Shown here in pieces: positions 17,744-41,580 of a stretch of 64,000 bases of DNA. The DNA lies in assembly GCF_021325795.1 (NCBI RefSeq), contig NZ_JAHPZX010000003.1, positions 434,001-498,000 on the forward strand, written 5' to 3'. Every line of letters starts with the position of its first letter. The stretch's first letter is position 1. This stretch comes from Bordetella sp. LUAb4 (GTDB lineage Bacteria > Pseudomonadota > Gammaproteobacteria > Burkholderiales > Burkholderiaceae_B). The position numbers and the translations under genes are program-made. The notes beneath the pieces are model-generated. The model did no database searches. It saw nothing but the letters and a program-made list of their open reading frames with translations, and was not told the DNA's origin.

Positions 17744-20700
17744 TCAGCTTCCCACCTTGACGTTGACGCTGCATCCCTGGCCGACATTCGTGTTGCTGGC
17801 GGTCAGTGTGGCATTGCCGCTGCCGGCGTTGGCATAGACATCCTGATAGACCCCGCCCAGGCTGTCGGTCGTGCACGTCACGGACGTCTTGCCGGCGTTG
17901 CCCTGCTCGAAACTCACCTGGGTCCCGTGATTGGCGAGACTCAAGGTCACGGTCTGTCCGGCAATCGCGACGCGGGTGTCCTGGTCGAACAGGTAGAAGC
18001 TCATGCGCCGTTTGTCCTGCGCCGTCATGGTCAGCGAAGGTGCGCCCGGCACGATGCCGTAGCTCAACTGCGCGGGCGCAACGACCGTCAGCCCGAAAGT
18101 AGCGCCGTTATCGATATTCCCTTGGGCTTTTACCCGGAACGCGGCCGCCGTGTTGCCGGCGAGGATGCGCGGGGCCGTGGCATAACCGTCGGCGTCGGAG
18201 CGCACCAGAACCGACGTGGCGTCACCCGAGACGATGTTGACGCGCGGATCGGGATCATCCAGGTCGAATGTGTTCGTGGTGGTGCTTATGGTGAACTTCA
18301 CCAGGTATCCGTCGAGATACTCCGTGTCGTAGTTGGCACGGGTCACCAGACGGTCGCTGAACCATTCTCCCGGGCGCGCCTGGCCGCCGTCGCCCGCGGT
18401 CTTCAGAAGCGCTATCGAAGAGAAAGGACCCCATGAGCGCTCGCTGAATTGCGCGGTCCGGCTCGGTGGGTCCGTGGCGGGATCGAAGGGATCGGGATAG
18501 GCGATGACCTTGGTGACGAGATATTCCCAGGGCGCGATATATGCGTTGGCCGACGACAGGAGCGGCGCCGTGGCCACACCGTTCTTGACGGGCACCGTGG
18601 CATGGTCGGGGGTACTGCCCGCGAACGTGGCGCCGGTGTCGTCGTCCGCGGCGATCCTGAAGGTGACGGTCCCTGTATTGCAGGGACGCCCATGGACGTC
18701 CTGCACCGACACCGACAGCGGGATCGGGAACTGATAGCCCACGGACTCGTCCTGCAGGTCTCCACCCGCCACCTGCACGAAATAAGGCGCGGTGGAAGCA
18801 TCCAGTACCGTCAGCTTGAAATGGTCGGGCGGATTGGCGGTCACATTGCCCATCACCGATACCTGGATTTCTCCCGGCGTATCGCCGGCCAGGATGCGGG
18901 GCGCGGTGGCGTTGCCGGAAGCATCGGCGCGGACGACGACCGAGCGTGCCGTGCCCGAAACCAGCTGCACATCCCGATTGTTGTCCGTCAGGTCGAAAGC
19001 GCCGCTGCCGGTGATGATCGCGAAGGTCATCAGATATCCGGGCACGGGCGTGCTGCCGTTGACGGCCTGGACCTGCAGCCTGGCGAAGTAGCTGCCGACG
19101 ATGGCAGATTGCGAGTCACCCGCCGTCTTCTTTATCGTGACCGAGCTGTTGGCCGACCAGACGCGTTCGCTGAAGTGAGCGGTCTGGTTCGACGTGTCGG
19201 CATGCGGATCGCCCCCGGTGTAGGTCTTGGGATAGGCGACCACGTCGACGACATAAGCGCTGTTGCTGTTGGCCGCGTGTCCAGCGACCAGCAGCGGCGC
19301 GATCGCAGCGCCGGAGACGACATCGACGCTGGCTTCATTCTGTCGCGTGCCACCGACCTCGAAGTAGCCATCGATGGTGTTCTTGAATATCTTGAAGGTG
19401 ACCTGGCCCGTCAAGGCTGGCCTGCCTTGTGCGTCGGTCACCGACACCGACAGCGGTGTGGGATACGACGCGTCCATGTAGATGTCCTGGCCATCCCCCT
19501 TGTCTACCGCCACGAAGCGCGCCTGGGTGGTCGTGTCCTTGACCGTCAGGGCGAATGTGGGTTTGGTCGTGGACGCGGAGCCGGAGGCCGTGATCGTGAC
19601 GCTGCCGGCGGCATTGGCGGCCTTGACGAGGGGCGCCGTGGCGGTGCCGTCAGCGTTGGATCGAACGACAACGGTCTGTTCATCGCCGTCGACGATTTCG
19701 ACGGCTGAATCGTCCAGGGCGAATGTGGCGCTGCCCGCGGGTGAAATGGTGAAAGTCACCAGGTATTGGCCGAGCGGGGAGTTGGCCACGCGCGCGTTGC
19801 TGACGCTGACCGCCGGCCGCAGCGGGAAATTCTGGCCCATCGGGGTCGACTGGGACTGGCCCTGGGTGGCGGCGATGCTCACGTAGCTGCCCGACCAGAC
19901 CCGTTCGGTGAAGTGCGCCGTACGCCCGCTCGTATCGCTCTTGGGATCTCCCTGGAACGATGACGTTGGATAAGCAATGACCTGCACCTCGCCGTAGTTG
20001 AAGGACGCGGTGGTGGCCACCGCGACCAGGGACGGCACGTATGCCTTGCCGCCGCTTACCTTGGCGGTGTAAGACATGCCCGAGGCGTTGGCGAAGCGTG
20101 CCGATCCGGTGCCTGGAACGATCAGGAAGGTGACGCTGGTGCCGTCGGCCGCCGGCGTATTCTGCGCCGTCGTCACCGCCACCACCAGGCTTTCGACGAA
20201 AGGTTGCTGGTTGACCTGATCCTGCATGTCTCCCTGCTGCTTGGAGACATAGTACGCGTCGGTCGAGGGCGATAGCACCTTCAACGCGAACGGCAATGTC
20301 GCGGCTGCCACGGTGACAGACGCGGTGATGGTGACGTCGCTGGCCTTATCGCCTGCCTGAACAGGCGGCGCGGTTGCCTGGCCATCAGAGTTCGTGCGCA
20401 CGACAGCGCTGGTGTCGGACAGGCTCACATAGGCGGATTTCTGCGATCCCGTCACGAATTTCGCCGACCCGTCCAGCGTGAAGGTGACCAGTATGTCCGC
20501 GACAGGCGCCGTGCCGTCCTGGACGGCTACGATCAGGGGAACGGAAAACAGCTCACCTGGCAGGGCGCTTTGATTGTTGCCTTGAATTCGCGTCAGGACG
20601 GCGGACTTGGCGTACCAGCCACGTTGTTTGAATACGGCCGTGCGGCCATCCGCCGCGCCATGCTGGGTGTTATCGGAGGTATAGGCCAGCACATTGAAGA

Positions 20701-22558
20701 CGACGTAAGGCGTACTGTCCGTGCTCTTGCGAACGGCAGTCAACAGCGGAGAAACGGCGCCTCCTTCTTCGACGGCCACCGTTGCCGTCGCTTGTCCATT
20801 GAATTGGCCCGTGATCGCGGCATTGACTGCCTCGAACACAACGTTCCCGTCCTTGACGGGCGCCCCGTTCGGGTCCACCACCTTGACCGTCAGCGGCATT
20901 TCAAAATTCTGGCCGATGACCTGATCCTGCCAATCGCCTTCATTGACGGCGCATGAATCCCCGTGGTCTAGCGGTGGCAGCACTGACAGATGGAAATCGA
21001 CGTCTTGGGTACTGTCGGTGACCGTGCTGCTGGCGGTGACGATGAAGTCGCAGGTGCCCGCGGTGCCGGCCTGGATGAGTGGCGTCTTGGCGCGCCCGTC
21101 GCTGCCCGCGCGCACCAGCACCTTGGTCGGCGTGAACGTCACGGTGGGGGCTTCGGTATCGTGCTGGTCGAACTGCGCGCACCACGCGGGACCCTTGATC
21201 TCGAAAGTGACCAGCATATTTGGAACCGAATTGCCCAACTCGTCCTTGACCGCCACCACGAGCCGGTCACTGAAGTCCAATCCTTGGTTGGCTTTCTGGT
21301 TGTCGCCGGCGATATTGCTCATGGTCGCCGTATTCGCCCGCCAAACGCGCTCGCTGTAGCGAGCCACCCGACCGGAGGTGTCGCTGCCGGGGTCACCGGT
21401 ATACGAGCGCGGATAAGCAAGGACGGAAGCCGTCCCGTATCCCGACCGTCCGTACGTGCTGTTGCCGTCCGGTTGCAGCGGTGTGGTCGTGGCGGCGGCG
21501 CCGTCGTTCACGTCCGCGGTCACCGACAAGGCGTCGCCGAACATCACGCGCGCTGCGGCAATCTGGGGCTGGAAAACGATGGTGCCGGCGTCCGCGGCCA
21601 GTCCGTCTTTTGTATAGGCCTTGACGGAAAGCGGCAGAACATAATTCGAACCAGGTACCTGGTCCTGGAAGTCGCCCTGATCCACCGTGACGCTCCAGGC
21701 GTCACCAGTACCGTCCGCGGCGCGGATGGAGAGCGAGAAATAGACTTGCGAGGTGGAAAAATCACTGGTCGCTATGATGCGAACGGCGCCGGCCTGGCTT
21801 CCTGCCACCAGGCGGGGCGCGATGGCAACACCATTCTGGCAAAGCACGATAGCCTCGCGGCCATCGTCCGAGATCGATACCTGGCCCTGGTTGGTGCCGG
21901 CGCGATCCCAGCTGGCGGCGTTGCCGTCGCTGGAGATGCGGAAGCGCACCTGCATGCCCTGCGTGGCGCGTTCGGAGTGCCAGCTGTCCGTGACGCGGAC
22001 AGCCAGGGATTTATCGAATTGGCGGCCCGGCGCCGCCGACTGGCCGTCGGTATCGCTGACCAGGCTCATCACGGCGGATCTGGCACCCCAGATACGGACT
22101 TCGAACAGCGCAATGGCGGGCGCCGCGGAGAGGGCGAAGGGGGGGCCTTGTACCGACGGATCATGGGCGACGATATAGCCCTTGCCGTAATCCGGCGATT
22201 CGTCGCAGCGCTGGCCTTGCTGTGCCTGGAAAGTGCCTGTCGCGATACCGGTGATGCCGCCGTCCAGGCCCGTATAGAGGTCCTGCGTCGCCGGTGCGAT
22301 GACCACGGTGGAAGCGGGGTAGCCGCTGTCTTCGAAGACTTCCGCGGCGTAGGTATAGCGGATCGGTTGATTCCCTTGTATGAGTCCCGCCCCTTGAGCG
22401 CTCTCATACAATGCCGCCGTCAGCGTGAAGGGCTGGGAACCCAGACTGTGCACGATACGCGGATGGCCGAGGCCGTCACTGGCCCCCAATGCCGAGCGGA
22501 CGCTCCGCTGCTGGCTGGAGGTAGTGGCGCTCACTGAGGTCGATGTATGCATTTTCAT
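17744..22558 (-). CDS. Giant tandem Ig-like repeat protein (A), 1604 residues
   Basis: A head of about 130 residues contains CDESPDYGKGYIVAHD. About eleven Ig-like modules follow, alternating two kinds. Kind a opens with GDxQDQ...F..PL.V.V (GDWQDQVIGQNFEMPLTVKV, GDMQDQ, GDLQDE) and ends with a YTGDP..DTSGR.A.F.ERVW block. Kind b opens with GDNQxA..G..F...L.V.V and ends with VVRS.ADG.ATAP...AG. A cap domain of about 100 residues closes the chain. This resembles Big_1/invasin-type adhesin stalks, but there is no Sec signal, membrane anchor or beta-barrel. Start ATG at 22558, or GTG at 22567, which has a better AGGA site. It is the last gene of the D-C-B-A unit. Function unknown; adhesin or secreted effector is inference. 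Confidence 0.8.
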   Translation of the reverse strand: MKMHTSTSVSATTSSQQRSVRSALGASDGLGHPRIVHSLGSQPFTLTAALYESAQGAGLIQGNQPIRYTYAAEVFEDSGYPASTVVIAPATQDLYTGLDGGITGIATGTFQAQQGQRCDESPDYGKGYIVAHDPSVQGPPFALSAAPAIALFEVRIWGARSAVMSLVSDTDGQSAAPGRQFDKSLAVRVTDSWHSERATQGMQVRFRISSDGNAASWDRAGTNQGQVSISDDGREAIVLCQNGVAIAPRLVAGSQAGAVRIIATSDFSTSQVYFSLSIRAADGTGDAWSVTVDQGDFQDQVPGSNYVLPLSVKAYTKDGLAADAGTIVFQPQIAAARVMFGDALSVTADVNDGAAATTTPLQPDGNSTYGRSGYGTASVLAYPRSYTGDPGSDTSGRVARYSERVWRANTATMSNIAGDNQKANQGLDFSDRLVVAVKDELGNSVPNMLVTFEIKGPAWCAQFDQHDTEAPTVTFTPTKVLVRAGSDGRAKTPLIQAGTAGTCDFIVTASSTVTDSTQDVDFHLSVLPPLDHGDSCAVNEGDWQDQVIGQNFEMPLTVKVVDPNGAPVKDGNVVFEAVNAAITGQFNGQATATVAVEEGGAVSPLLTAVRKSTDSTPYVVFNVLAYTSDNTQHGAADGRTAVFKQRGWYAKSAVLTRIQGNNQSALPGELFSVPLIVAVQDGTAPVADILVTFTLDGSAKFVTGSQKSAYVSLSDTSAVVRTNSDGQATAPPVQAGDKASDVTITASVTVAAATLPFALKVLSPSTDAYYVSKQQGDMQDQVNQQPFVESLVVAVTTAQNTPAADGTSVTFLIVPGTGSARFANASGMSYTAKVSGGKAYVPSLVAVATTASFNYGEVQVIAYPTSSFQGDPKSDTSGRTAHFTERVWSGSYVSIAATQGQSQSTPMGQNFPLRPAVSVSNARVANSPLGQYLVTFTISPAGSATFALDDSAVEIVDGDEQTVVVRSNADGTATAPLVKAANAAGSVTITASGSASTTKPTFALTVKDTTTQARFVAVDKGDGQDIYMDASYPTPLSVSVTDAQGRPALTGQVTFKIFKNTIDGYFEVGGTRQNEASVDVVSGAAIAPLLVAGHAANSNSAYVVDVVAYPKTYTGGDPHADTSNQTAHFSERVWSANSSVTIKKTAGDSQSAIVGSYFARLQVQAVNGSTPVPGYLMTFAIITGSGAFDLTDNNRDVQLVSGTARSVVVRADASGNATAPRILAGDTPGEIQVSVMGNVTANPPDHFKLTVLDASTAPYFVQVAGGDLQDESVGYQFPIPLSVSVQDVHGRPCNTGTVTFRIAADDDTGATFAGSTPDHATVPVKNGVATAPLLSSANAYIAPWEYLVTKVIAYPDPFDPATDPPSRTAQFSERSWGPFSSIALLKTAGDGGQARPGEWFSDRLVTRANYDTEYLDGYLVKFTISTTTNTFDLDDPDPRVNIVSGDATSVLVRSDADGYATAPRILAGNTAAAFRVKAQGNIDNGATFGLTVVAPAQLSYGIVPGAPSLTMTAQDKRRMSFYLFDQDTRVAIAGQTVTLSLANHGTQVSFEQGNAGKTSVTCTTDSLGGVYQDVYANAGSGNATLTASNTNVGQGCSVNVKVGS

Positions 22559-22586: not shown

Positions 22587-23429
22587 TCAGACAACGTTGA
22601 TATAAAAAACCACGCGCACATCCGAGAATCGGGATGTAGCGACCACCGTGACGGTGCCCTTCGTGAAGCCAGCCCTGATGGGCGGCGCCATGGCGGGACC
22701 GCCCTGGGACAGCACCCAGGCTGTCGTCGGCGTGATCGTCTGATAGCGATCGGAGTCGCTCTCCGTATCGAAGCGGGCATCGCCGTCGGCGATCTCGAAT
22801 TGCACCGCCATGCCGTCCGTCGCACGCGCGGAGCCGACACTGTCCGTGACCATGACGCAGAGCGACTCGCCAAAGTAGCGATTGGCCTCGGTGGATTGCT
22901 GGTTGCCCCCGCAGGGTTCGAGCTGCGCACTGGCGCGTTTCCAGACGCGCACCGTGAAGCTCGCGGCCCAGGGCAGATCAGCGGGGGTAAGCGTCGCGAT
23001 CGTGGTTGGAGGCGCGTAGGCAAGGACGCGGGCGATGCCATAATCCGGAGAGATGGCGCTGGATGCCGCGACGCCGGCGGCCACGAATTGGGTGGCGGTC
23101 GTGCGCCCCTTGCTATCGACTGGATTGGTGAGCGTTGCCGGTGTCAGGGTGGCGGACGATACGGCGCCGAAGTCCAAGCCTGCGCCAAATGGCGCGAAAG
23201 TCACGTTGGCGTTGGCAGTGACGGGATTCACGCCTTGCAGCCCTTGCTGCACGGTCACGGACAGGGGGTCGATGGTGTCGCCGACGAAGACATCCCTGAC
23301 GGATGGGTGGACGGCGCTGAACGCATCGGTCTGAGTCTTCACGCAGAGCCTGCCGTTGTTGGCGTCTGCCTCGGCGGGAACACGGATCCGTGGCGCCGGA
23401 ATGGAGTGCAAAAACGAGGAATTATTCAT
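22587..23429 (-). CDS. Short head-plus-one-module Ig-like protein (B), 280 residues
   Basis: Same plan as the first part of its giant neighbours. A head carries SPDYGIARVLAYAPP and FTVRVWKRASAQ, then one kind-b module (GGNQQSTEANRYFGESLCVMV through VLSQGGPAMAPPIRAGFTKG). It ends at the module boundary, with no stalk or cap. It has no signal peptide and starts with MNNSSFLHSIPAPRIRV. It lies 24 bp after the RCC1 gene and 28 bp before the giant gene A. Related short genes are at 32542-33480 and 40639-41580, each directly before a giant gene. It is a partner or decoy of the giant protein by inference only. Confidence 0.7.
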   Translation of the reverse strand: MNNSSFLHSIPAPRIRVPAEADANNGRLCVKTQTDAFSAVHPSVRDVFVGDTIDPLSVTVQQGLQGVNPVTANANVTFAPFGAGLDFGAVSSATLTPATLTNPVDSKGRTTATQFVAAGVAASSAISPDYGIARVLAYAPPTTIATLTPADLPWAASFTVRVWKRASAQLEPCGGNQQSTEANRYFGESLCVMVTDSVGSARATDGMAVQFEIADGDARFDTESDSDRYQTITPTTAWVLSQGGPAMAPPIRAGFTKGTVTVVATSRFSDVRVVFYINVV

Positions 23430-23453: not shown

Positions 23454-24581
23454 TCAGTTGGGAGCCAGCGCCGTGCTGAAGAAGTAGCCGGGTTGCAGTG
23501 CGAACCACTTGCTCAAGGATGAGGCATTGCTCGGTATGGTCGGGGTGGTGGCATAGAGCACATTGCCCTGCATCGAGGCAGTGGCCTCTCCGTACCCATT
23601 GCTGCCCCAGACGTACAGCTTCCTGCTACCGTCGCTCATCTCCAGGATGATCCCGGAATTCAAAGCGTTGGCTTCCAACGCGATGCAGGATTTGATGAGC
23701 GATGCGTCGGGCAGCTGCAATATCTTTTGCGGGGTGCCCTGCACCCATGTCTGGTCGTCGCCCAGGCCCAGCTGGCCGACCTTGCCGCGCCCCCATGCGT
23801 AGACCTGGCGATTGGCATCCATCGCGATGCCGTGCGTCGCGCCGACGGCGACATGCAGCCATTTGCCTTGGTTGAAGTTGGCCTGCCGCGGAGTGTTCAC
23901 CGGTTTGCCGTTGGTATCGACGCCGGTGATCGCCGTGATCTGGTTCTCTCTGTTGTCGCCCCAGACGTACAAGCGTCCTTCGCTGTCGATGGCGGCGGCC
24001 ATGTCGACCCCGGCACTGACCTGCACGATGTTCCGGCTTGCCGCGAAAATTCGCATGGGCTTGTCGATGATGGCATCCGTCGTCCCGCACCCTACCGCGC
24101 CAAGATCATTCTTGCCCCAGGCCCACCAGGATCCGTCCTCGAGCTTGCCGATGGACAGGTCTCGCTTGCTGTATATCGCGGTCCACTTCCCCTGCGTATT
24201 GGCCAGGTCGATCCGCTGCAATGCGTACAAGGGACCGCTCTTGCCCTGTTCGCCGCCGCCCAGTGCGCCAAACGTATTCTGTCCTGCTCCCCAGATATCG
24301 CCGTCGCCGTTGATCAGCAAGGTATGGCGCGTACCCGTGGCAACACTGGTCACCTTGGAAACCACGCCAATACGCTTGGGACTCGTGTACTTGGACGAGT
24401 TCTGGTCGTCCAGGCCCAGTTGTCCGCTTTGGTTCATGCCCCAGGTCCAGGGGTAGCCATCGCTGTCGATAGCGACGGCATGTTGGAAGTTGGCGCTCAA
24501 GGCCGTCCAGTTGGTCTGGTTGAACGGCGAATTGATGGCGTCATTGCTTGGGCCCGACGGCGGGCTGACGGTTTGGTTCAT
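23454..24581 (-). CDS. RCC1-repeat beta-propeller protein (C), 375 residues
   Basis: Six RCC1-type blades with the W-G-x-N/G...GQLG signature are visible: TWGMNQSGQLG, IWGAGQNTFGALGG, AWGKNDLGAVGCG, VWGDNRENQ, AWGRGKVGQLGLGD and VWGSNGYGEA. Each is preceded by an HAVAID-like strand. RCC1 propellers usually have seven blades. The gene before it ends in an isolated WGWG..GVLG motif, so a blade may have been separated. The ATG has AGGA about 10 nt upstream. No signal peptide. RCC1 proteins in bacteria include secreted effectors, but the role here is unknown. Confidence 0.85.
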   Translation of the reverse strand: MNQTVSPPSGPSNDAINSPFNQTNWTALSANFQHAVAIDSDGYPWTWGMNQSGQLGLDDQNSSKYTSPKRIGVVSKVTSVATGTRHTLLINGDGDIWGAGQNTFGALGGGEQGKSGPLYALQRIDLANTQGKWTAIYSKRDLSIGKLEDGSWWAWGKNDLGAVGCGTTDAIIDKPMRIFAASRNIVQVSAGVDMAAAIDSEGRLYVWGDNRENQITAITGVDTNGKPVNTPRQANFNQGKWLHVAVGATHGIAMDANRQVYAWGRGKVGQLGLGDDQTWVQGTPQKILQLPDASLIKSCIALEANALNSGIILEMSDGSRKLYVWGSNGYGEATASMQGNVLYATTPTIPSNASSLSKWFALQPGYFFSTALAPN

Positions 24582-24668: not shown

Positions 24669-25769
24669 CTATCCGAGGACGCCGCTATCCGTCGAGCCCC
24701 AACCCCACAGGGATCCGGTTTGGCCGGGCGCAGGCCCGCTGACGTTCTTGATCTGCACCGCGGTTGGAGGCGAGTCCTCGTTGCCGTCGACGGTGTATTG
24801 GGCGAAGTAATGGCCCTGATCCGGCACGGCGTTGACCCTGTCGCGCGGGATGGGTGTGCCGGTGTATGGCGTCGCCACGATGCTGGTGATGGGCGCGGAC
24901 TGCCAGTTGGCCGCTGCAATGGCTTTGCCTTCCTGATCCGTGCCCCAGCCGTGGATCTGGACCACTGAGGTGCTGGTGATGACGGCGGTGGAAGGAATCT
25001 TCAGGCCGACGTCCTGACCAGCCGGAAGCGTGATGAGGTTGAGCACGCCATTCTGCGCATCCGTGAAGACAGGCGCGGGCAATTCCTTCGGTGTCGGGGG
25101 ATACCATTCAGAACCGAACTGTTGCTTCGTGGCCGACAGGAATGCCTGGTAGCGCCGCGGCTGCGGACCCTGGCCGCTGGCCGTCTTCTCGAGATGGAAA
25201 TAGGTGATGATCCCCTGGCTGGCACTGGGCGAGGGCGTTACGCCGTGCATCGTCATGCTGTCTCCCCCGGATTCGACAGGGTAGTTGTGGGTTGCCGTGC
25301 GGATCAAGCGCCAGCCCGGCTTCGTGATCTCATAGAGTTCGATGGTGAGCTTGATGTTATCGCCGGCCACCAACTTCAAGGAGGGATTGAAAGCGACCTT
25401 TACCGAGACAGTGACCTCCATTCCCTCGGCGGGCGTGCTGCCGGAGGGAGCGAGCGTCGGTGCGGGAAGAAAGTGGGAGGTATCCTGCGTGTTGACGCTG
25501 GCGACGGCCGAATAGCTGGTGTTGCCGATGGCGTCGCCGCCGAGGTACCACACCTCGACGGTGCCATTGCAGACCTGAGGCGAAGGAATGGCGATAGGAT
25601 CGTTGGGCTTGCCCACCGTGCTTGAAATGGGCTCAAAACATCCCCAATGCATGGAGGTGACATCGTTAGCGCCCTGGTCGTGCACTTGAGCCGTTGCAGT
25701 CACTCCGTCATAGGTTTCCAGCACCCCATAGGGAGTGACCGGCGAGATGGTGGGTGCAGCGAGGGGCAT
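24669..25769 (-). CDS. Beta-domain protein ending in an RCC1 signature (D), 366 residues
   Basis: First gene of the D-C-B-A unit, with the shared promoter arrangement at 25823-25867. Three beta-rich segments are seen: residues 1-100 (MPLAAPTISPVTPYGVLETY), 105-220 (VSVKVAFNPSLKLVAGDNIKLTIELY) and 235-345 (LPAPVFTDAQNGVLNLITLP). The last looks like the repeated LPAP...G.L.. domain that I recall in large Pseudomonas proteins (memory, not searched). The final residues SLWGWGSTDSGVLG match an RCC1 blade motif and then stop. The stop is followed in frame by another stop after three codons. Function unknown. Confidence 0.72.
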   Translation of the reverse strand: MPLAAPTISPVTPYGVLETYDGVTATAQVHDQGANDVTSMHWGCFEPISSTVGKPNDPIAIPSPQVCNGTVEVWYLGGDAIGNTSYSAVASVNTQDTSHFLPAPTLAPSGSTPAEGMEVTVSVKVAFNPSLKLVAGDNIKLTIELYEITKPGWRLIRTATHNYPVESGGDSMTMHGVTPSPSASQGIITYFHLEKTASGQGPQPRRYQAFLSATKQQFGSEWYPPTPKELPAPVFTDAQNGVLNLITLPAGQDVGLKIPSTAVITSTSVVQIHGWGTDQEGKAIAAANWQSAPITSIVATPYTGTPIPRDRVNAVPDQGHYFAQYTVDGNEDSPPTAVQIKNVSGPAPGQTGSLWGWGSTDSGVLG

Positions 25770-29021: not shown

Positions 29022-29034
29022 GGTTATGCGTTTT

Positions 29035-29061: not shown

Positions 29062-29126
29062 TCCGGGGTAAAGCGAGATACGCTTTCGGTTGAAGAGTTC
29101 CTGCTGAAAACCCGATCGCTAAAGAC

Positions 29127-32513: not shown

Positions 32514-32541
32514 GGCTATGCGTTCCAATTTGAATCGCGCA

Positions 32542-33480
32542 TCAGGTCACATTGGCGGAGAAATACGCCTTGGGGCCGCCGGCCAGCGGCGTTGTCACTT
32601 CGATCTTGCACGCCCCGGGGTTTGCACCCGCCAGCAGAGAGGGCGCGATGGCGTAGCCATCTTCGACGGTGACCGCCGCGACCTTGCCGTTCTTGCTGAT
32701 ACGGCTGTAGCGCGCGGTGTTGCCTGACTCTGAAAAGGTGATATCGCCGCTGATGATGGAGAAGGTGATCACCATGTTCTCCACCGCGCGGGGGGAACCC
32801 GTGCTGTCAACGGCGAGGGCCGTCAGCGGGGCGGGGAAGAAATTGCCGCGATAGACGGACTGCCCGCTCCCGCTCTGAGCGGCCGTAATAGGCGTGGCGC
32901 CGAACCAGGTCCGTACCGCGAACACCGCGCACCTGGCCAGGTCAGTGTCGGCGGTGGGACCCGAGGGCATTGTTCCAGTCTCGTAGGCCAGGAAGTAGCC
33001 GATACCGTAATCGGGCGAGAAGCCGCTTGGACCCGTGGGCTTCTGCATGACGATGCCATAGGCCGTGGCTAGGACGTCGTCGCCGGTGGTGACGAAGCCT
33101 TTGATGGACGATTGGTTAGGCGCGGCGGTCGAGACAAAACCAAACCACTTCTGCTTCCAGACGAACATGACGTCGCCACCGGGGACGGCAGGCTTGCGCC
33201 CCCAGGTCGTGTCCTGGCAGCGCGCGATCAGAGGCGCGACCAACTGGCCAGGCAGCACATCCTTGACCTCTGGATGGTCGTCGGAGAACTCGTCCCAATG
33301 TATGCGCGTCGCGATATTTTTCGACGCGGCATCGCGCTGCTCCTTGCCCGCTTGATCTGGCGATGCCTGCGAGGGATTTCGAGCTTGGGCGAAGTGCTGC
33401 GTCAGCGTCATCCGCCGTGGACGATCGCCCAGCGCATTGGTGCTGGATGCTTGCATCTGGACATCGGTTTTGTCGTTCAT
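32542..33480 (-). CDS. Short head-plus-one-module Ig-like protein (G), 312 residues
   Basis: The start at 33480 (MNDKTDVQMQASSTNA) has AGGAA 8 nt upstream; an in-frame ATG 33 bp earlier lacks a site. The head includes IHWDEFSDDHPEVKDVLPGQ, GFSPDYGIGYFLAYETG and AVFAVRTWF, then one kind-b module (GSGQSVYRGNFF through GYAIAPSLLAGANPG). It closely resembles the protein at 40639-41580. The N-terminal 65 residues are polar and Ser/Gln/Arg-rich, with no Sec signal. The upstream region keeps a degenerate form of the shared promoter (GGAAAAAATGG without the TTAC repeats), so it probably depends on read-through from H. Confidence 0.72.
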   Translation of the reverse strand: MNDKTDVQMQASSTNALGDRPRRMTLTQHFAQARNPSQASPDQAGKEQRDAASKNIATRIHWDEFSDDHPEVKDVLPGQLVAPLIARCQDTTWGRKPAVPGGDVMFVWKQKWFGFVSTAAPNQSSIKGFVTTGDDVLATAYGIVMQKPTGPSGFSPDYGIGYFLAYETGTMPSGPTADTDLARCAVFAVRTWFGATPITAAQSGSGQSVYRGNFFPAPLTALAVDSTGSPRAVENMVITFSIISGDITFSESGNTARYSRISKNGKVAAVTVEDGYAIAPSLLAGANPGACKIEVTTPLAGGPKAYFSANVT

Positions 33481-33549
33481 GAGTTTCTGTTCCTTGTCGA
33501 AATCCCGTGGCATCAGGTCCCATTTTTTCCTGGGGCCGAGGGAGGGAGC

Positions 33550-33575: not shown

Positions 33576-33597
33576 CGTGGTAAAGCGGGGCGACCTC

Positions 33598-35370: not shown

Positions 35371-37005
35371 CTGGGGGATGACCGACGTCAGGGAAAAATT
35401 CTGAGTATTGGGGGTTACCGCCGAACTTGCCGCAACGAAGATCGAGCCGACCTTGTTGGCGGTGGTGCGTATCAGCGGCGCCGTGGCGTAGCCGTCCCCA
35501 TCGGTGGCGACCACCACCGAGGTGGGCGTCCAGCTCAGGAGCGGGACGGTATCTCCCTGGATGAATTCAGCTGGACTGTTTATCAAGGCGAAGGTGACAG
35601 CTAGATTGGCCACGGCGGAGCTGTCCTTGCCCAGGACCTTGACCTTGAGCCGCTGGTCGAACGTCAGTCCGGCGGCCTGCTGTTGCTTGTCGCCTTGCGC
35701 GATGGTCATGGCCGCGACCTTACCGCTCCATACGCGCAGCGTGAACTTCGCGATCCTGCCCGACGTGTCGGTGCGGGGGTCTTGGGTTCGATAGGTGCTG
35801 GGAGAGGCGAAGACATTGCCGACGGCGTAACCGGCTGGTCCATACTCACTGGTCTTGGTGACCATGGCGGGAGCGGTGGCGGTGCCTCCTCCATCATCGT
35901 CCACCTCGACGATGGCCTCCTGGCCGCTGGCGAAAGAGATGTTGGCTGTTTCGTCCTCTACCGGACCCTCGTAGATATCAAACTTCACCTTTCCCGTCGT
36001 GGCGGGCAGATGGCTTTTCGTTATGGCCTTGGCGACGATCCTGTCAGGAAACGGGTTGCCGGCAATGGTGTCTTGATGGTCAGCGCGTCCTGTATCGCAG
36101 TACCAAGGCGCCGATTCGGGGGCTCCGTCTTCGTCGACATGCAAGACGAACAGATACTCTTCTGAGCTGAAAACGCAGCCTGCGCTGATCTTGACGTCTC
36201 CGGCAGCCTTGCTTTTGATACGAGGGCACGTCGCAATGCCGTTCTTGCACCAGACGTACACCCAGCCGCAGGGAATGGCGTCATTTTTTCCTAAGTACCG
36301 CTGGTTATCCCCGCTGAAATCGAACTCGGCCTGGTCTGGTGTGTCGAGCGAGAACCACACCAGCATATTGTGTGTGGCCTCCATGGATCCCTGGGAGTCG
36401 GTGACTTTCACCGACAAAGGCGTCGAGAACACATCATTGGTCTTTGCCGTCTGGCCGTCACCTCGATAAGCGGTGATCAGTGCTGAGTCCTCACGCCAAC
36501 AGCGATATTCGAAGGTGACATTCCTATGCTGATTTCCTGCGTTCCTGTTGTTGTACATATCGTCGGGCGTCACATTTATATACCCTGACGAATAATCCGG
36601 CGAACTCGTTACGTTGGGAGCCGGAGGGGAGATCTGGCCCGGCGCATAGACGGCCCTTTGATCACTTGTAAGGCTCTGCGCAGAAGGATTCCAAGTCACT
36701 GCCGAAGTCGGATACTTGAGGTCGTCATAGACTTGCTCGCCAGCATTGACAGGAAAGAAAGCGACGTTGCCGCTCACGATCTCATTGCCATAGCTGCTGC
36801 TATACCGTTTGACCGTGAACCATGCGATTCCACCATTAAGGTATTGGGCGATCGTTGGAACGGATCTATACCAAACGTCGCTGCCGTTCCAGTAGACTCG
36901 AACGGAGGACTGCGAGTTCCGGTCGTCTCGCTGAGTAACAGCGTCGACGGTTGACTCGGAGGCGGACGCTGAAATGGACTCGGTACTCTTGCGGAGTTCT
37001 GTCAT
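33598..37005 (-). CDS. Giant Ig-like repeat protein (H), 1135 residues
   Basis: First gene of its unit, with the shared promoter element at 37043-37087. The ATG at 37005 is chosen over an ATG 6 bp upstream because AGGAA then has normal spacing and the start aligns with genes F and I. Head with SVRVYWNGSDVWYRSVPTI and TSSPDYSSGYINVTPDDMY, seven Ig-like modules (GDGQTAKTNDVFSTPLSVKV onward) and a cap ending VAVQVFSN. The body is almost identical to gene F, but the first 165 residues differ at many positions. No signal peptide, membrane segment or cysteine-rich region. Function unknown. Confidence 0.8.
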   Translation of the reverse strand: MTELRKSTESISASASESTVDAVTQRDDRNSQSSVRVYWNGSDVWYRSVPTIAQYLNGGIAWFTVKRYSSSYGNEIVSGNVAFFPVNAGEQVYDDLKYPTSAVTWNPSAQSLTSDQRAVYAPGQISPPAPNVTSSPDYSSGYINVTPDDMYNNRNAGNQHRNVTFEYRCWREDSALITAYRGDGQTAKTNDVFSTPLSVKVTDSQGSMEATHNMLVWFSLDTPDQAEFDFSGDNQRYLGKNDAIPCGWVYVWCKNGIATCPRIKSKAAGDVKISAGCVFSSEEYLFVLHVDEDGAPESAPWYCDTGRADHQDTIAGNPFPDRIVAKAITKSHLPATTGKVKFDIYEGPVEDETANISFASGQEAIVEVDDDGGGTATAPAMVTKTSEYGPAGYAVGNVFASPSTYRTQDPRTDTSGRIAKFTLRVWSGKVAAMTIAQGDKQQQAAGLTFDQRLKVKVLGKDSSAVANLAVTFALINSPAEFIQGDTVPLLSWTPTSVVVATDGDGYATAPLIRTTANKVGSIFVAASSAVTPNTQNFSLTSVIPQGAAVGLQKENGDQQDQHINELFPFPLSVLASAKDGPAQTGQITFTSVADGASGAFIAKGTSQQSPTSVANVSDGSAVTPDALMAISVSNAKQSYGSFTVKATAPYSTLPTTFSQRVWRNKNAVLTPQGDGNPADNQALEGFPFKSPVTVRVTDPSGNIVNDLLVTFTIDGSATFRYDDLSGHQGTDMAAMVYTRDGLATSPDIIAGAKAGTVTITADATVAVKPVEFQLEVLEAATAPNFTYPLSGDKQDQLPGGSFAFPLVVSTKTIDGQAATTGDVYWEIAPDTATASFAGVSGLKTTTKVVNGVATSPPIVAGKSYDDDHGTLTVYAYPTSYTGDPKNDTIKEQVTAFTLRVWPEDFIHLVPGSDHQKANKGEDFADPLTVTVQDTHLAGAPVTDYLVTFKITNGPATFDPDDPNADYVSMTSDNKTAVVRSNFIGIATAPTLQAGMEAGTVTVVVSDPLSNHASYSDLTVIDPLPKVYILTALTTTLSIPVNSSNNASFQLKQLNGSGASVAGKNITFTLKNDTRSQASFSPAALETETSHVTDGGGLVTVKIWGMDIPGNALLYASQEQANPDPTIPVAVQVFSN

Positions 37006-37042
37006 GGCCATGCTTTCCTATTCGAATGGGGCATCAGCCCAC

Positions 37043-37087
37043 ATTCTTTCTTGGTGCGAGGACCGGGGTAGAGTAATTTTCGGTAAC
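37043..37087 (-). promoter_or_regulatory. Shared promoter-like element, copy before gene H
   Basis: Minus strand: GTTAC-CGAAA-ATTACT, 21 bp, then GAAAGAAT, with the same 45-bp span as the copies before genes D and J. The distal end is 38 nt from the start codon at 37005. The upstream terminator of gene I (37157-37190) isolates it from the previous unit. Confidence 0.7.
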
Positions 37088-37156
37088 CCCGATTGATTTG
37101 AGTCATCTCGCCGCTGAAATCTTGATGATGTGGTCGTCATTCGCAGCGGACAAAAG

Positions 37157-37211
37157 AAAAAAGCCGCGAGCAAAATAATCTGCTCGCGGCTCGCGGCTCG
37201 CGGCTCGCGGC
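37157..37211 (-). terminator. Terminator after gene I with 7-bp stem repeats
   Basis: Arms GCCGCGAGCA (37163-37172) and TGCTCGCGGC (37181-37190), followed on the minus strand by six T (plus-strand A-run 37157-37162). The right arm is extended by tandem TCGCGGC units (37184-37190, 37191-37197, 37198-37204, 37205-37211), so several alternative stems can form. It closes the J-I unit. Confidence 0.8.
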
Positions 37212-37234
37212 TCCGCGGTAAGGCGGGGGATGCT

Positions 37235-40200
37235 TTAGTTGCTGAAGACCTGCACGGAGACAGGGATGGTGCCGTCGGGGTTGGCTTGCTCCTGCGAGGC
37301 ATACAGGGAGGCGTTCCCGGGCTGGTCCATGCCCCAGATCTTTATGGAAGCCACGCCATTGGGATCGGTCGTGCCGTTGGTTTCGGTCTGGGGTGCGAAT
37401 GGCGAGAAGCTGGCCTGGCAATGCGTGTCGTTCTTCAGGGTGAACGTGATGTTTTTTCCCGCTACCGAGGCGCCCGAGTTATCAAGTTGTTTGAGCTGGA
37501 AGCTTGCGCTGTTCGAGCCATTCATCGGTATGGACACGGATGTCGATAGCGCTGACAGGATGTACACCTTGGGTGCCGGGTCGACGACGGTCAGACTCTT
37601 GTACGACGCATGATTGCCCAGGGGGTCGCTGACGACTACCGTGACGGCACCCCCCTCCATGCCCGCTCGCAATGCGGGAGCAGTGGCGATGCCCATGAAA
37701 TTGCTGCGCACGACTGTCGTCTTGTTGTCCGGCGTCATCGACACATAATCCGCATCGGGGTCGTCCGGGTCGAAGGTGGCGGGGCCGTTGGTAATCCTGA
37801 ACGTCACCAGATAGTCCGTCACCGGCCCGTTGTCCAGATGGCTGTCCTGGATGGCGACAGTCAGTGGATCGGGAAAATTCTCGCCCTTGGAGGCCTTCTG
37901 ATTATCCGAACCGGGGACCAGATTGATGAAGTTTTTCGCCCATACCCTCAAGGTAAATGCGCTGACCTGACCGTTGATGTCGTCGTCTTGCGGCTTGCCG
38001 GTGTAGGAGGTGGGGTAGGCATAGACCGTCAATATCCCGTGATCGTCGTCCGCCGTAGCGCCCGCGACGATGGAGGGTGAGGTCGCCACGCCGTTGACCA
38101 CTTGGGTCGTGGTCTTCAACCCGCTCACCCCGGCGAAGGAAGCCGTTGCGGTTCCTGGCACGATTTCCCAGAAGACATCGCCCGTGGTGGCTGTCTCGCC
38201 TTCGATGGTTTTCGTCGAGACGACGAGTGGCATGGAGAACGAGCCACCGGGCAACTGGTCCTGTTTGTCTCCGCTCTGCGGATACGTGAAGTTGGGTGCT
38301 GTCGCGGACTCCAGGACTTCCAGCTGGAACTCCACCGGCTTGACCGCCACGGTGGCGTCCGCGGTGATGGTGACGGTACCGGCGCTGTCGCCAGCGATGA
38401 TTTCCGGCGAGGTGGCCAGGCCGTTTCTGGTGTACACCATGGCGGCCATGTCGGTGCCCTGATGACCGCTCAAGTCGTCGTAGCGGAAGGTGGCGGACCC
38501 ATCGATGGTGAAGGTCACCAGCAGGTCATTGACGATATTGCCGCTGGGATCGGTGACGAGTACGGTCACCGGCGAGCGGAAGGGAAAGCCCTCGAGGGCC
38601 TGGTTGTCCTCCGGCTTGCTATCATCTTGCGCTGTCAGCACCGCATTCTTGTTGCGCCAGACTCTTTGAGTGAACGTCGTCGGAAGATTGGAATAGGGCG
38701 CGGAGGCCTTCACCGTGAAGGACCCATAGCTTTGTTTTGCATTCGAGACGCTTATTGCCATCAGTGCGTCCGGGGTAACGGCGGAGCCGTCGCTGACGTT
38801 GGCGACGGAGGTCGGTTTTTGCTGATTCGTGCCGTTGGTAATGAATGCCCCCGACGCGCCATCAGCCACGCTGGTGAAGGTGATCTGGCCGGTTTGGGCG
38901 GGGCCGTCTTTCGCGAAGGCCAGGACCGACAGCGGAAACGGGAAGAGTTCGTTGATGTGTTGGTCCTGCAGATCGCCGCTTTCCTTTTGCAGGCCGACTG
39001 CCGCTCCCAAGGGGATGACCGAGGACAGGGAAAAATTCTGAGTACTGGACACCGCCGAACTCGCCGCAACGAAGATCGAGCCGATCTTGTTGGCGGTGGC
39101 GCGTATCAGCGGCGCCGTGGCGTAGCCATCGTTATCCGTGGCGACCACCACCGAGGTGGGCGTCCAGCTCAGAAGCGGGACAGTATCTCCCTGGATGAAT
39201 TCAGCTGGACTGTTTATCAAGGCGAAGGTGACAGTTAGATTGGCCACGGCGGAGCCGTCCTTGCCCAGGACCTTGACCTTGAGCCGCTGGTCGAACGTTA
39301 GTCCGGCGTGCTGCTGTTGCTTGTCGCCCTGCGCGATGGTCATGGCCGCGATCCTGCCGCTCCATACGCGCAGCGTGAACGTCGCGATCCTGCCCGACGT
39401 GTCGGTGCGAGGATCTTGTGTTCGATAGGTGCTGGGATAGGCGAAGACACTGCCGACGGCGTAACCGGCCGGTCCATATTCGCTGGTCTTGGTGACCATG
39501 GCGGGAGCGGTGGCGGTGCCCCCGCCGTCTGGGTCCACCCGTACGATGGCCTCCGGGCTATCGCCGAAAGAGATGTTGGCCATTTCGCCCTGGACAGGAT
39601 CCGTATAGATATCAAACTTTACCTTTCCCGTTGTAGCGGGCAGGTGGGTTTGCGTCTGTACCTTGGCGACGAGGTCCTGTGGAAACGAGGTGCCGACAAT
39701 AGTGTCTTGATGGTCATTGCGCAATGGCGTGCAGAACCACGGCGCCGATGAGGTATCCCCGTCATCGTCGACGTGCAAGACGAACATGTACGAGTTCGGG
39801 TTGGCCAGGACGCAGCTTGCGAAGACCTTGACGGTTCCGGCGGTCTTGCTTTTGATGCGAGGGGCCGTTGCAACACCATTCTTGCACCAGACCTGCACGT
39901 TGTATCCGTCCTGAATCGTCGAGTACCGCTGGTTATCCCCGAGGAAATCGAATTCGGCCTGGTCCTTGGTCTGGATCTCGAACCACACCGGCATATTGTG
40001 TGCGGCCTCCATGGATCCCTGGGAGTCAGTGACCTTCACCGACAACGGTGTCGAGAACACATCATTCGTCTCTGCCGACTGTCCATCACCCTTATAAGCA
40101 GTCAGCCGTGCTGTGTGCTGTAGCCAATAGCGGTATTCAAATTGGGTAAACCTATCCAGAGAGGCCCGGCTGGTAGTCGAAAACTGTGCCGGCACAACGT

Positions 40201-40612
40201 TTATGTAGCCGGCGCAGTAGTCTGGGGAAGCCGATACGTTGGGAGTTGGCTGCGCGTAACTGTCCACCATAAATGCTTGCCGTCCCCTTTCCACGTCCAT
40301 TAGGCCGTCCGTCCAATTCACTTCCGAAATAGGGAATGCGCAGTCGTAGTACGCTGGATTGGGATAATCGACAGGCTGGAAAACCGGGTAGTCAACCATC
40401 TGCTGACTGCCGTAGTTGCTCGTGTACGTCAGAGTCCAGAAGTTAGGCATCACGTACAGTGAGTGGGAGATCGCTTGAGAGCCGAGAAAGCCTAGACTGC
40501 TGTTCCAGTGGATTCGGACGCTTTCCTGGGAGGTGTCGTCGCGCTGAGTAACAGCATCCACGGACGCTGCGGAAACGGACTCGGAATCGGTATTCTTGCT
40601 GAGTTTGGTCAT
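37235..40612 (-). CDS. Giant Ig-like repeat protein (I), 1125 residues
   Basis: Second gene of the J-I unit, 26 bp after gene J; GGAA lies 7-10 nt upstream of the ATG. Head 1-165 is the most divergent of the four (SASPDYCAGYINVVP at about 127-141; FEYRYWLQHTARL at 158-170). Seven modules start near residues 170 onward with GDGQSAETNDVFSTPLSVKV, NDHQDTIVGTSFPQDLVAKV, GDKQQQHAGLTFDQRLKVKV, GDLQDQHINELFPFPLSVLA, DNQALEGFPFRSPVTVLV, GDKQDQLPGGSFSMPLVVST and DNQKASKGENFPDPLTVAI. The cap ends VSVQVFSN. No Sec signal. Followed by a strong terminator. Confidence 0.8.
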   Translation of the reverse strand: MTKLSKNTDSESVSAASVDAVTQRDDTSQESVRIHWNSSLGFLGSQAISHSLYVMPNFWTLTYTSNYGSQQMVDYPVFQPVDYPNPAYYDCAFPISEVNWTDGLMDVERGRQAFMVDSYAQPTPNVSASPDYCAGYINVVPAQFSTTSRASLDRFTQFEYRYWLQHTARLTAYKGDGQSAETNDVFSTPLSVKVTDSQGSMEAAHNMPVWFEIQTKDQAEFDFLGDNQRYSTIQDGYNVQVWCKNGVATAPRIKSKTAGTVKVFASCVLANPNSYMFVLHVDDDGDTSSAPWFCTPLRNDHQDTIVGTSFPQDLVAKVQTQTHLPATTGKVKFDIYTDPVQGEMANISFGDSPEAIVRVDPDGGGTATAPAMVTKTSEYGPAGYAVGSVFAYPSTYRTQDPRTDTSGRIATFTLRVWSGRIAAMTIAQGDKQQQHAGLTFDQRLKVKVLGKDGSAVANLTVTFALINSPAEFIQGDTVPLLSWTPTSVVVATDNDGYATAPLIRATANKIGSIFVAASSAVSSTQNFSLSSVIPLGAAVGLQKESGDLQDQHINELFPFPLSVLAFAKDGPAQTGQITFTSVADGASGAFITNGTNQQKPTSVANVSDGSAVTPDALMAISVSNAKQSYGSFTVKASAPYSNLPTTFTQRVWRNKNAVLTAQDDSKPEDNQALEGFPFRSPVTVLVTDPSGNIVNDLLVTFTIDGSATFRYDDLSGHQGTDMAAMVYTRNGLATSPEIIAGDSAGTVTITADATVAVKPVEFQLEVLESATAPNFTYPQSGDKQDQLPGGSFSMPLVVSTKTIEGETATTGDVFWEIVPGTATASFAGVSGLKTTTQVVNGVATSPSIVAGATADDDHGILTVYAYPTSYTGKPQDDDINGQVSAFTLRVWAKNFINLVPGSDNQKASKGENFPDPLTVAIQDSHLDNGPVTDYLVTFRITNGPATFDPDDPDADYVSMTPDNKTTVVRSNFMGIATAPALRAGMEGGAVTVVVSDPLGNHASYKSLTVVDPAPKVYILSALSTSVSIPMNGSNSASFQLKQLDNSGASVAGKNITFTLKNDTHCQASFSPFAPQTETNGTTDPNGVASIKIWGMDQPGNASLYASQEQANPDGTIPVSVQVFSN

Positions 40613-40638
40613 GGCTATGTTCCAGTTTGAACCGTGGT

Positions 40639-41580
40639 TCAGGTCACATTCACGTTGAACGTCAGCGTGGCGCCGCCGGCCAATGGGGTTGACGCGCGGA
40701 TCTGGCACGCGCCGGATTTCGATCCCGCTAGGAGACCAGGCGCGATAGCGTAAGCACCCTCGACGGCGACCGCCGCGACCTTGCCGTTGTTGCTGATGCG
40801 GCTGTAGCGAGCGGTGTTTCCTGACTGAGCAAAGGTCACATCACCGCTGATGATGGAGAAAGTGATCACCATGTGTTCCGCGGCCCGTAGGGAACCCGTG
40901 CTGTCAGCGACAAGCGCGGTCAGCGGAGCGAAGAAGTTGCCACGATAGACGGACTGCCCGTCGCCGCTCTCGGTGGCGAGCTTTACGGTGGGTGCGAACC
41001 ATGTCCGTACCGCGAACACCGCGCACCTGGCGAGATCAGTGTCGGCTGTTGGACCCAGAGGAAGCGTTCCGGTCTCGTAGGCCATGAAGTAGCCAATGCC
41101 GTAATCCGGTGAGAAGCCGCTCGGCCCTGTGGGCTTTTGCATGACAATGCCATAGGCCGTGGCCAATACGTCATCGCCGGTAGTGACGAATCCTTTGATG
41201 GTCGAAGTGTTGGGCGCCGCTGTCGAAACCAGGCCAAGCCCAAACCAGTTCTGCCGCCAGACGAATTTGACGTTGCCGCCGGGGACGGCAGGCGTGCGCC
41301 CCCAGGTCGTGTCCTGGCAGCGCGCGATCAGGGGCGCTACCAACTGGCCCGGCAGCACATCCTTGACTTCCGGATGGTCGTCGGAGAACTCGTCCCAATG
41401 TATGCGCATGGCGATGTTCTTCGATGCGGCATCGCGCTGCTCCTCGCCTGCCTGCTTCAACGATTCCTGGGAGAAATTTCGGGCTTGCGCGAAGTGCTGC
41501 GTCAGCGTCGTCCGCCGAGGACGATAGTCCGGTGCAGTGGGGCTGGAGGCTTGCGTGTGGACCGCTGCTTCATCGTTCAT
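40639..41580 (-). CDS. Short head-plus-one-module Ig-like protein (J), 313 residues
   Basis: First gene of the J-I unit, with the shared promoter at 41622-41666. The ATG at 41580 (MNDEAAVHTQASSPTAPDY) follows AAGGAACGAAAGCCC. Close relative of the protein at 32542-33480: IHWDEFSDDHPEVKDVLPGQ, TTGDDVLATAYGIVMQKPTG and GFSPDYGIGYFMAYETG are shared, then one kind-b module (GDGQSVYRGNFFAPLTALV through GAYAIAPGLLAGSKSG). The polar N-terminus has no signal peptide. Role unknown; it always precedes a giant gene. Confidence 0.74.
   Translation of the reverse strand: MNDEAAVHTQASSPTAPDYRPRRTTLTQHFAQARNFSQESLKQAGEEQRDAASKNIAMRIHWDEFSDDHPEVKDVLPGQLVAPLIARCQDTTWGRTPAVPGGNVKFVWRQNWFGLGLVSTAAPNTSTIKGFVTTGDDVLATAYGIVMQKPTGPSGFSPDYGIGYFMAYETGTLPLGPTADTDLARCAVFAVRTWFAPTVKLATESGDGQSVYRGNFFAPLTALVADSTGSLRAAEHMVITFSIISGDVTFAQSGNTARYSRISNNGKVAAVAVEGAYAIAPGLLAGSKSGACQIRASTPLAGGATLTFNVNVT

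What the first reader, a model, noticed from the sequence alone, without database searches (positions are those of the whole stretch)
17744..41580. 24-kb cluster of ten genes for tandem Ig-like proteins, short head-only relatives and an RCC1 propeller
Seen: four giant proteins (A, E, F/H/I type) built from alternating module kinds opening with GDxQDQ or GDxQxA, and three short proteins that stop after the first module. There is also one RCC1 protein and one beta-domain protein, all on one strand between tRNA-Pro and a porin gene. Known: Big_1/invasin-like modules form adhesin stalks, normally with a Sec signal and a beta-barrel or LPXTG-type anchor. Here none of those is visible. Inference: a coordinated secreted or surface system of unknown type, not explained by any classical adhesin scheme.
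Basis: partly seen in the sequence, partly recalled or inferred. Interest (0 to 1): 0.85.

Follow-up and report, generated by a model that had tools for sequence, protein, structure and literature searches.

The report
Ig-rod cluster with split RCC1 propeller
An Achromobacter-type bacterium carries ten neighbouring genes for long rod-like proteins with fast-changing tips and for a ring-shaped protein whose missing last strand seems to be encoded at the end of a neighbouring gene.

Summary
The cluster is real: ten same-strand genes at 17744-41613 (five long proteins, not four; three short; one RCC1; one beta protein) between tRNA-Pro and a porin. It recurs at the same site in 2 of 5 other genomes of the genus (Achromobacter aloeverae, Achromobacter sp. 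HZ34) and elsewhere in a third. The long proteins are chains of Ig-like sandwiches whose head domain evolves faster than the C-terminal stalk (pN/pS 1.12 against 0.12 in the youngest pair). None of 31 proteins has a Sec-like start; export and location are unknown.

The RCC1 chain has six of seven closing-strand motifs; the seventh is the C-terminal end of the beta protein in 4 of 4 genomes. The RCC1 model builds six blades and leaves the last half-blade unfolded, although confidence already falls in blade six. Elsewhere homologous modules and RCC1 form one chain; here they are cut at the strand, with rod genes between them in two genomes. Best reading: a propeller closed in trans (inferred, not shown), beside a repertoire of rods with changing heads. 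New variant of a known kind.

The parts
40639..41613 (-). P0010, short protein (N-terminal extension + Ig-like D0 + D1)
   Evidence: ORF, 80% identical to P0007, aligns to heads of long proteins
37235..40612 (-). P0009, long rod protein; start corrected from the 40708 ORF start
   Evidence: 75% identical to P0008
33598..37011 (-). P0008, long rod protein, about nine beta-sandwich domains
   Evidence: AlphaFold2 model m9ca2f78b9db1, mean pLDDT 75.6, pTM 0.38; head and last domain weakly predicted
36493..36909 (-). fast-evolving head domain D0 of P0008 (residues 35-173)
   Evidence: pN/pS 1.12 against 0.12 in stalk D4-D7, P0008/P0006 pair, Fisher p 1.9e-10
32542..33513 (-). P0007, short protein
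29127..32513 (-). P0006, long rod protein; 94-97% DNA identity with P0008 over about the second half
25944..29021 (-). P0005, long rod protein without the last domain
24669..25769 (-). P0004, beta protein: about three Ig-like modules (by reading) and a C-terminal RCC1 closing-strand motif
   Evidence: third module similar to Ig-like modules of an Ig-RCC1 single-chain protein, hhalign probability 92.6
24672..24716 (-). closing-strand motif GSLWGWGSTDSGVLG at the very end of P0004
   Evidence: position-specific score 25.1, next best in the protein 1.0; ends at the last residue
23454..24581 (-). P0003, RCC1 propeller with six closing-strand motifs
   Evidence: Pfam RCC1 131.1 bits, model m6346e9bfc83c pTM 0.72, Foldseek best RPGR RCC1-like domain E 2.7e-21
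23457..23582 (-). last half-blade of P0003 (residues 334-375), not folded in the model
   Evidence: block pLDDT 31-43; residues 271-330 47-69, residues 31-270 mostly 63-90 apart from 101-120
22587..23429 (-). P0002, short protein
17744..22558 (-). P0001, longest rod protein (1604 aa); start corrected from 23041
17498..17574 (+). tRNA-Pro (CGG) at the conserved site; no exact repeat of its last 14 bases elsewhere in the window
41938..43188 (-). porin gene on the other side of the conserved site
   Evidence: Porin_4 182.6 bits

Best explanation
The cluster encodes (a) a repertoire of rod proteins, each a polar N-terminal extension, a fast-evolving Ig-like head and a string of Ig-like stalk domains kept alike by recombination, with short head-only forms; and (b) one two-chain hub in which the RCC1 protein (P0003) folds as an open seven-bladed propeller lacking the outer strand of its last blade, and the beta protein (P0004) supplies that strand with its C-terminal GSLWGWGSTDSGVLG, so that P0004's Ig-like modules become attached to the propeller. 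Rod heads most likely bind varied partners, and the hub most likely organises or caps the rods. Shown: gene content, the split at the strand motif in four genomes, conservation of the motif, the head/stalk rate contrast, absence of Sec-like starts. Inferred: strand donation in trans, surface or extracellular location, binding role of heads, any physical contact between hub and rods.
For: Seventh strand: the RCC1 chains of 4 of 4 genomes hold six motifs each (24 units). The four beta proteins have their best match 0-1 residues from the C-terminal end at 16.3-25.1 bits, next best at most 1.4. Of 1,659 ORF C-termini from the loci held, only these four proteins reach 16.3 (5 hits, one protein seen twice); 1 of 2,000 shuffled beta proteins reaches it anywhere. 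Tail identity exceeds that of the rest in 6 of 6 pairs. The P0003 model builds blades 1-6 and leaves the last half-blade at pLDDT 31-43. In one-chain proteins elsewhere a similar module precedes RCC1: Yersinia frederiksenii plasmid P0024 and P0021 of another Burkholderiales family (hhalign 92.6 and 97.2, control against the rods 0.3). Two separate chains: whole genes lie between the two parts in G001 and G003. Rods: head pN/pS 1.12, 0.72, 0.85 against stalk D4-D7 0.12, 0.28, 0.34 in 3 of 3 pairs against P0008, p at most 9.4e-6 (the pairs share P0008 and are not independent).
Against: No complex of P0003 and P0004 was modelled or measured. The P0003 model rests on three sequences; its confidence already falls in blade 6 (47-69 over residues 271-330) and residues 1-23 are low too, so the unfolded end may partly be a depth effect. 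In the one-chain relative P0021 the motif score does not find a seventh strand either, so cis closure there was judged by eye. Of the three head tests none is significantly above neutrality and one is significantly below (p 0.006), so relaxed constraint or import of heads by recombination fits as well. The head is not alone: D1 and D3 of the youngest pair are also only 73-74% identical with dN/dS about 0.6. Nothing links hub and rods physically, and the second array on C17 has rods without a hub.
Confidence: 0.45

Rival explanations
1. The P0004/P0003 boundary is a relic of an old gene split; the tail is a remnant without function and P0003 closes by itself or works open.
For: A split RCC1 gene is known in Legionella: pieG is split into lpg1975 and legG1 by one frameshift, which altered the effector's target (PMC7157520, passages). 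In G000 and G004 the two genes still lie in one frame, two stops and one stop apart.
Against: The tail is kept in 4 of 4 genomes whose beta proteins are 32-61% identical outside it, with tail identity higher in 6 of 6 pairs. Synonymous divergence of the beta and RCC1 genes in the two genome pairs measured (window/G004, G001/G004) is 0.80-1.35. The C-terminal half-blade of P0003 is kept too.
Confidence: 0.3
2. Ordinary surface adhesins: Big_1/invasin-like stalks exported and anchored by a system encoded elsewhere, for example the LssB-type type I exporter; the RCC1 pair is an incidental neighbour.
For: Paralogue P0015 passes the Pfam Big_1 cut-off (44.8 against 34.9); window rods match Big_1 below it. 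The genome has one LssB-type exporter over the cut-off, on C13. Foldseek finds generic tandem Ig-like and macroglobulin chains.
Against: No Sec-like start in 31 of 31, no RTX or LPXTG in 23 of 23, no barrel domain in the ten proteins, no export gene among the ten flank ORFs scanned. RCC1 and beta genes accompany the rods in 4 of 4 main clusters.
Confidence: 0.3
3. Proteins delivered into other cells by a contact-dependent system (type III or VI); RCC1 and Ig-like parts act on host or rival proteins.
For: Many N-termini are polar and low in hydrophobic residues (the link to type III signals is recalled). RCC1 proteins are injected effectors in Legionella (PMC7157520; that they lack a Sec signal is recalled). 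The genome has two FHIPEP and two VasE genes.
Against: Two FHIPEP genes occur in all 6 genomes of the genus, with or without the cluster, so their presence says nothing. No catalytic domain was matched and no linkage seen in the flank ORFs scanned.
Confidence: 0.13
4. Phage tail fibres, a tailocin or a defence island.
For: Ig-like domains are frequent on phage tails (recalled). P0003 matches three PHROG families named regulator of chromosome condensation (best 1.9e-27) and, weakly, one tail family (0.021), so RCC1 repeats do occur in phages. The cluster lies by a tRNA gene.
Against: Apart from P0003 no cluster protein has a PHROG match below 0.001 (nine scanned; best 0.0018 over 27 residues of P0009). 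No phage or plasmid match for P0008, no confirmed viral contig for rods or beta protein, no PADLOC match in 6 proteins, no exact repeat of the tRNA end.
Confidence: 0.04

Closest known systems
Single-chain Ig-like + RCC1 protein of a Yersinia frederiksenii plasmid (WP_241391687.1, P0024) and its Ig-only neighbour (P0023)
   Same: Similar Ig-like modules (hhalign 92.6 with the third module of the beta family), no Sec-like start by eye, RCC1 repeats at the C-terminus of P0024, both annotated hypothetical protein
   Different: Ig-like part and RCC1 in one chain; no rod array seen in the 16.8-kb stretch; lies near autotransporter genes on a mobilizable plasmid
Legionella RCC1-repeat effectors PieG / LegG1 + Lpg1975
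   Same: RCC1 gene split into two adjacent genes
   Different: Split by one frameshift in some strains; only LegG1 has a predicted RCC1 repeat; effectors of a type IV system (PMC7157520, passages read). Here stops plus, in two genomes, inserted genes, at the closing strand
Sec13/Nup145C and Seh1/Nup85 (domain invasion motif)
   Same: Incomplete propeller lacking one blade, bound by a segment of a partner protein (PMC8907234, passages)
   Different: WD40 family, a whole blade, eukaryotic; here RCC1 family, one strand, bacterial, and only inferred
Big_1 / invasin-type adhesin stalks
   Same: Tandem Ig-like sandwiches; a paralogue passes the Big_1 cut-off
   Different: No Sec-like start, no barrel or cell-wall anchor found

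Membership tests
Big_1 / invasin-type (inverse autotransporter) adhesins | Big_1 domain over Pfam cut-off | tested here: not met
   Ten window proteins: at most 26.8 bits against 34.9; met by paralogue P0015 only, 44.8
Big_1 / invasin-type (inverse autotransporter) adhesins | Sec signal peptide | tested here: not met
   0 of 31 proteins reach the porin control hydropathy in the first 70 residues; a simple hydropathy test, no signal-peptide predictor was on hand
Big_1 / invasin-type (inverse autotransporter) adhesins | beta-barrel anchor domain | tested here: not met
   No barrel family in Pfam or NCBIfam for the ten window proteins
RTX / LapA-type type I adhesins | RTX GGxGxD repeats | tested here: not met
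   0 of 23 proteins
RTX / LapA-type type I adhesins | Linked type I exporter genes | tested here: not met
   The only LssB-type gene over cut-off is on another contig, C13
RCC1 propeller family | RCC1 repeats over Pfam cut-off | tested here: met
   PF00415 131.1 bits against 21.7; Foldseek to RPGR and UVR8
RCC1 propeller family | Seven complete blades in one chain | tested here: not met
   Six closing-strand motifs; last half-blade unfolded in a model of modest confidence. The one-chain relative P0021 also shows only six by this score
Trans-completed propeller (Sec13/Nup145C kind) | Open propeller lacking a segment | tested here: inconclusive
   Sequence and model agree, but the model rests on three sequences and its confidence falls before the end
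Trans-completed propeller (Sec13/Nup145C kind) | Partner inserts the missing segment | tested here: inconclusive
   Motif present at the partner's C-terminus in 4 of 4; contact not tested
Legionella-type RCC1 effectors | Delivery into host cells | not testable with these tools
   FHIPEP copies uninformative, 2 in each of 6 genomes
Phage tail fibre / tailocin | Similarity or linkage to phage structural genes | tested here: not met
   Nine of ten proteins without a PHROG match below 0.001; P0003 matches phage RCC1 families, its only tail match is weak, 0.021; P0008 none in phages; none confirmed in viral contigs

The most novel reading that the evidence does not exclude
A bacterial propeller closed in trans: the outer strand of the last RCC1 blade is encoded as the C-terminal end of a separate Ig-like protein, so assembly of the propeller and attachment of the Ig-like part are one event, and this two-chain hub serves a set of signal-less Ig rods with exchangeable, fast-evolving heads exported by a route not yet described for them.
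Probability: 0.33. Interest if true: 0.78.

Novelty: new variant of a known kind. Interest (0 to 1): 0.6.

Why it matters
If the strand is donated in trans, this is a natural split RCC1 propeller in bacteria: a directly testable pair for how repeat propellers close, comparable to Sec13/Nup145C. The conserved cluster with changing heads and homogenised stalks also looks like a recognition repertoire whose export route is an open and testable question, because the usual signals were not found in any of the members examined.

Tried and rejected
Family libraries: Pfam, NCBIfam, PHROGs and PADLOC gave nothing for rods, shorts or beta protein beyond sub-threshold hits (PADLOC on 6 of 10 proteins). 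PDB sequence searches found no relative of the rods or the beta protein at a convincing E-value (best 0.32). Plasmids and phages: no match for P0008; no plasmid match for P0004. Plasmid matches of P0003, P0021, P0022 and P0024 are RCC1 repeats of many bacteria. Viral contigs: patterns matched but no relative confirmed. A type III link was tested through FHIPEP copies and is uninformative. A repeat of the tRNA end as an insertion mark was not found. The N-terminal part of the L079 protein found no match in 303 genomes, which without a positive control shows nothing. P0022 found 1 of 331 genomes, weakly. The phylum search gave one further genome, G652, read as a secreted protein of other make-up. 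The whole beta profile against P0021 gave no convincing alignment (68, probability 15.7); the single-module profiles did.

Limits: the scan of 84,980 named species genomes used two short peptide patterns and confirmed 2 loci, so distant relatives may be missed. RCC1 repeats as such are common: the RCC1 profile matched 44 of 399 genomes of the order, of which I read four loci from three genomes. Fold comparison of the rods gives TM at most 0.21 and identifies no specific relative (105). Pfam was run on ten flank ORFs and the synthetase ORF, not on all ORFs of the window.
Full report
What is there. The window is part of a 6.66-Mb genome (G000) of the same genus as Achromobacter aloeverae AVA-1 and Achromobacter sp. 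HZ34. Ten minus-strand genes lie at 17744-41613, in order of transcription short P0010, long P0009, long P0008, short P0007, long P0006, long P0005, beta P0004, RCC1 P0003, short P0002, long P0001. On one side are a polyprenyl synthetase gene and tRNA-Pro, on the other a porin.

Distribution. With P0008, 4 of 200 genomes matched, the own one included, all of one genus; with P0010, 4 of 6 genomes of the genus, own included. G001 and G004 are A. aloeverae AVA-1 and sp. HZ34. In G000, G001 and G004 the cluster sits between the same tRNA-Pro and a porin; in G003 it is elsewhere, with smaller rods and no tRNA in the 13-kb stretch. The beta profile matched 1 of 369 genomes of the class, the own one. 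The rod profile matched 2 of 349 genomes of the phylum, the own one and a weak hit in a protein of other make-up. No plasmid or phage record matched P0008, and no viral contig was confirmed. RCC1 repeats as such are common: 44 of 399 genomes of the order, and phage families too. The own genome has a second array of four tandem rods on contig C17, without RCC1 or beta genes.

Rods. The P0008 model (mean pLDDT 75.6, pTM 0.38) is a string of about nine beta sandwiches: a weakly predicted head (residues 34-172, block pLDDT mostly 37-71, 81 only in its last block or so), seven well-predicted domains, and a weak last one (about 48-53); the overall arrangement is not predicted. GDxQD openings recur every 235-247 residues in the window rods. 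Pfam sees Big_1 only below cut-off in the window, above it in paralogue P0015. Foldseek finds generic tandem Ig-like and macroglobulin chains with TM at most 0.21. DNA identity between copies is lowest at the N-terminal end and reaches 94-97% over about the second half for P0008/P0006. Against P0008, head pN/pS is 1.12, 0.72 and 0.85 for P0006, P0009 and P0005, stalk D4-D7 0.12, 0.28 and 0.34, Fisher p 1.9e-10, 3.6e-7 and 9.4e-6; the three pairs share P0008. None of the three heads is significantly above neutrality, and one is significantly below (p 0.006), so this shows fast evolution, not proven positive selection. D1 and D3 of the youngest pair are raised too (73-74% identity, dN/dS about 0.6), and synonymous divergence differs between segments, as exchange of segments would cause.

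Export. Of 31 proteins from four genomes and the C17 array, none reaches the porin control in the first 70 residues (best 1.81 against 1.98). RTX motifs and LPXTG are absent in 23 of 23. The genome has one LssB-type exporter over the cut-off, two FHIPEP and two VasE genes, all on other contigs or outside the window. FHIPEP is present twice in all six genomes of the genus, so it does not discriminate. Location is therefore unknown.

Split propeller. P0003 is a clear RCC1 protein (Foldseek RPGR E 2.7e-21). Reading the P0003 sequence gives seven blade halves of the kind VxxGxxHxxAx, but each of the four RCC1 chains has only six strands of the kind hhWGxNxxGQLG. A score built from the 24 strands finds its best site in each of the four beta proteins at the last residue or one before it: GSLWGWGSTDSGVLG in the window (25.1 bits), 22.7, 17.9 and 16.3 elsewhere; next best sites score at most 1.4. 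Among 1,659 ORF C-termini in the loci held, only these four proteins reach 16.3; one of 2,000 shuffled beta proteins reaches it anywhere. The tail is more alike than the rest in 6 of 6 pairs. In the AlphaFold2 model of P0003 (three sequences, mean pLDDT 67.4, pTM 0.72), strands are assigned for blades 1 to 6, at block pLDDT mostly 63-90 up to residue 270 and 47-69 for residues 271-330; residues 334-375, the last half-blade, are at 31-43. Confidence thus falls gradually before it drops. What the half-blade lacks in sequence is the strand that the beta tail resembles.

Why two chains. In G001 a long and a short gene, and in G003 a long gene, lie between the beta and RCC1 genes, so readthrough cannot join them there. 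In G000 two stops and in G004 one stop separate them in frame. In other bacteria the order is kept in one chain. The third module of the beta family is similar to Ig-like modules of the Yersinia frederiksenii plasmid proteins P0023 and P0024 (hhalign probability 92.6), and these to the N-terminal part of P0021 of another Burkholderiales family (97.2), while a control against the rods gives 0.3. P0024 and P0021 continue into RCC1 repeats. The split thus falls at the closing strand of an Ig-RCC1 chain. In P0021 the score does not find a seventh strand, so its closure in cis was judged by eye; the N-terminal start of P0021 is also uncertain.

Comparison with print. A split RCC1 gene is known in Legionella, by a frameshift (PMC7157520, passages). 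Propellers lacking a blade that a partner's motif invades are known for Sec13 and Seh1 (PMC8907234, passages). Searches for RCC1 with split, beta-propeller and bacteria (81, 10 listed), RCC1-like in bacterial genomes (82, 1), RCC1 with Achromobacter (45, 1), with Ig-like and secreted (52, 6), with effector and type III secretion (120, 12 of 101 listed), with adhesins in Pseudomonas (121, 0) and with operon and Burkholderi (127, 4), and for Achromobacter aloeverae (50, 2), listed no title or abstract start that describes this cluster. Apart from the passages named and one passage of PMC3482391 only listings were seen, and most subscription journals are not held.

Judgement. The gene cluster, the split at the strand motif and the rate contrast are results. 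Donation of the strand in trans is the best explanation of the split (I put it at about six in ten). That the rods display changing heads outside the cell is plausible but untested. Together they give 0.45 for the full statement. It is a new variant of known kinds (tandem Ig-like chains, RCC1 propellers, trans-completed propellers), not a new category.

Noticed in passing
own genome C17:176880-185930 (L009:6881-15931): Second array of four tandem signal-less Ig-like proteins, unlinked, no RCC1 or beta gene; copies 3 and 4 share 89-95% DNA identity in the C-terminal part and differ in the N-terminal part.
   Followed up: partly
L102 (NZ_MT039225.1 plasmid of Yersinia frederiksenii) 3444-8969: Two hypothetical proteins of similar Ig-like modules, one with RCC1 repeats, near autotransporter genes on a mobilizable plasmid.
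   Followed up: partly
L044:10844-12586 (minus strand): Extra RCC1-like protein (P0022) directly upstream of the beta gene in G003, with weaker RCC1 repeats (RCC1_2 29.4 bits).
   Followed up: partly
window 25944-41613: P0010-P0009-P0008 and P0007-P0006-P0005 look like a tandem duplication of a short-long-long unit, later mixed by gene conversion (P0008 is closest to P0006).
   Followed up: partly
window 43759-47478: A LysR gene, a second porin and another LysR gene follow the cluster-side porin; a LysR-like ORF (by eye) also follows the porin in A. aloeverae and HZ34.
   Followed up: no
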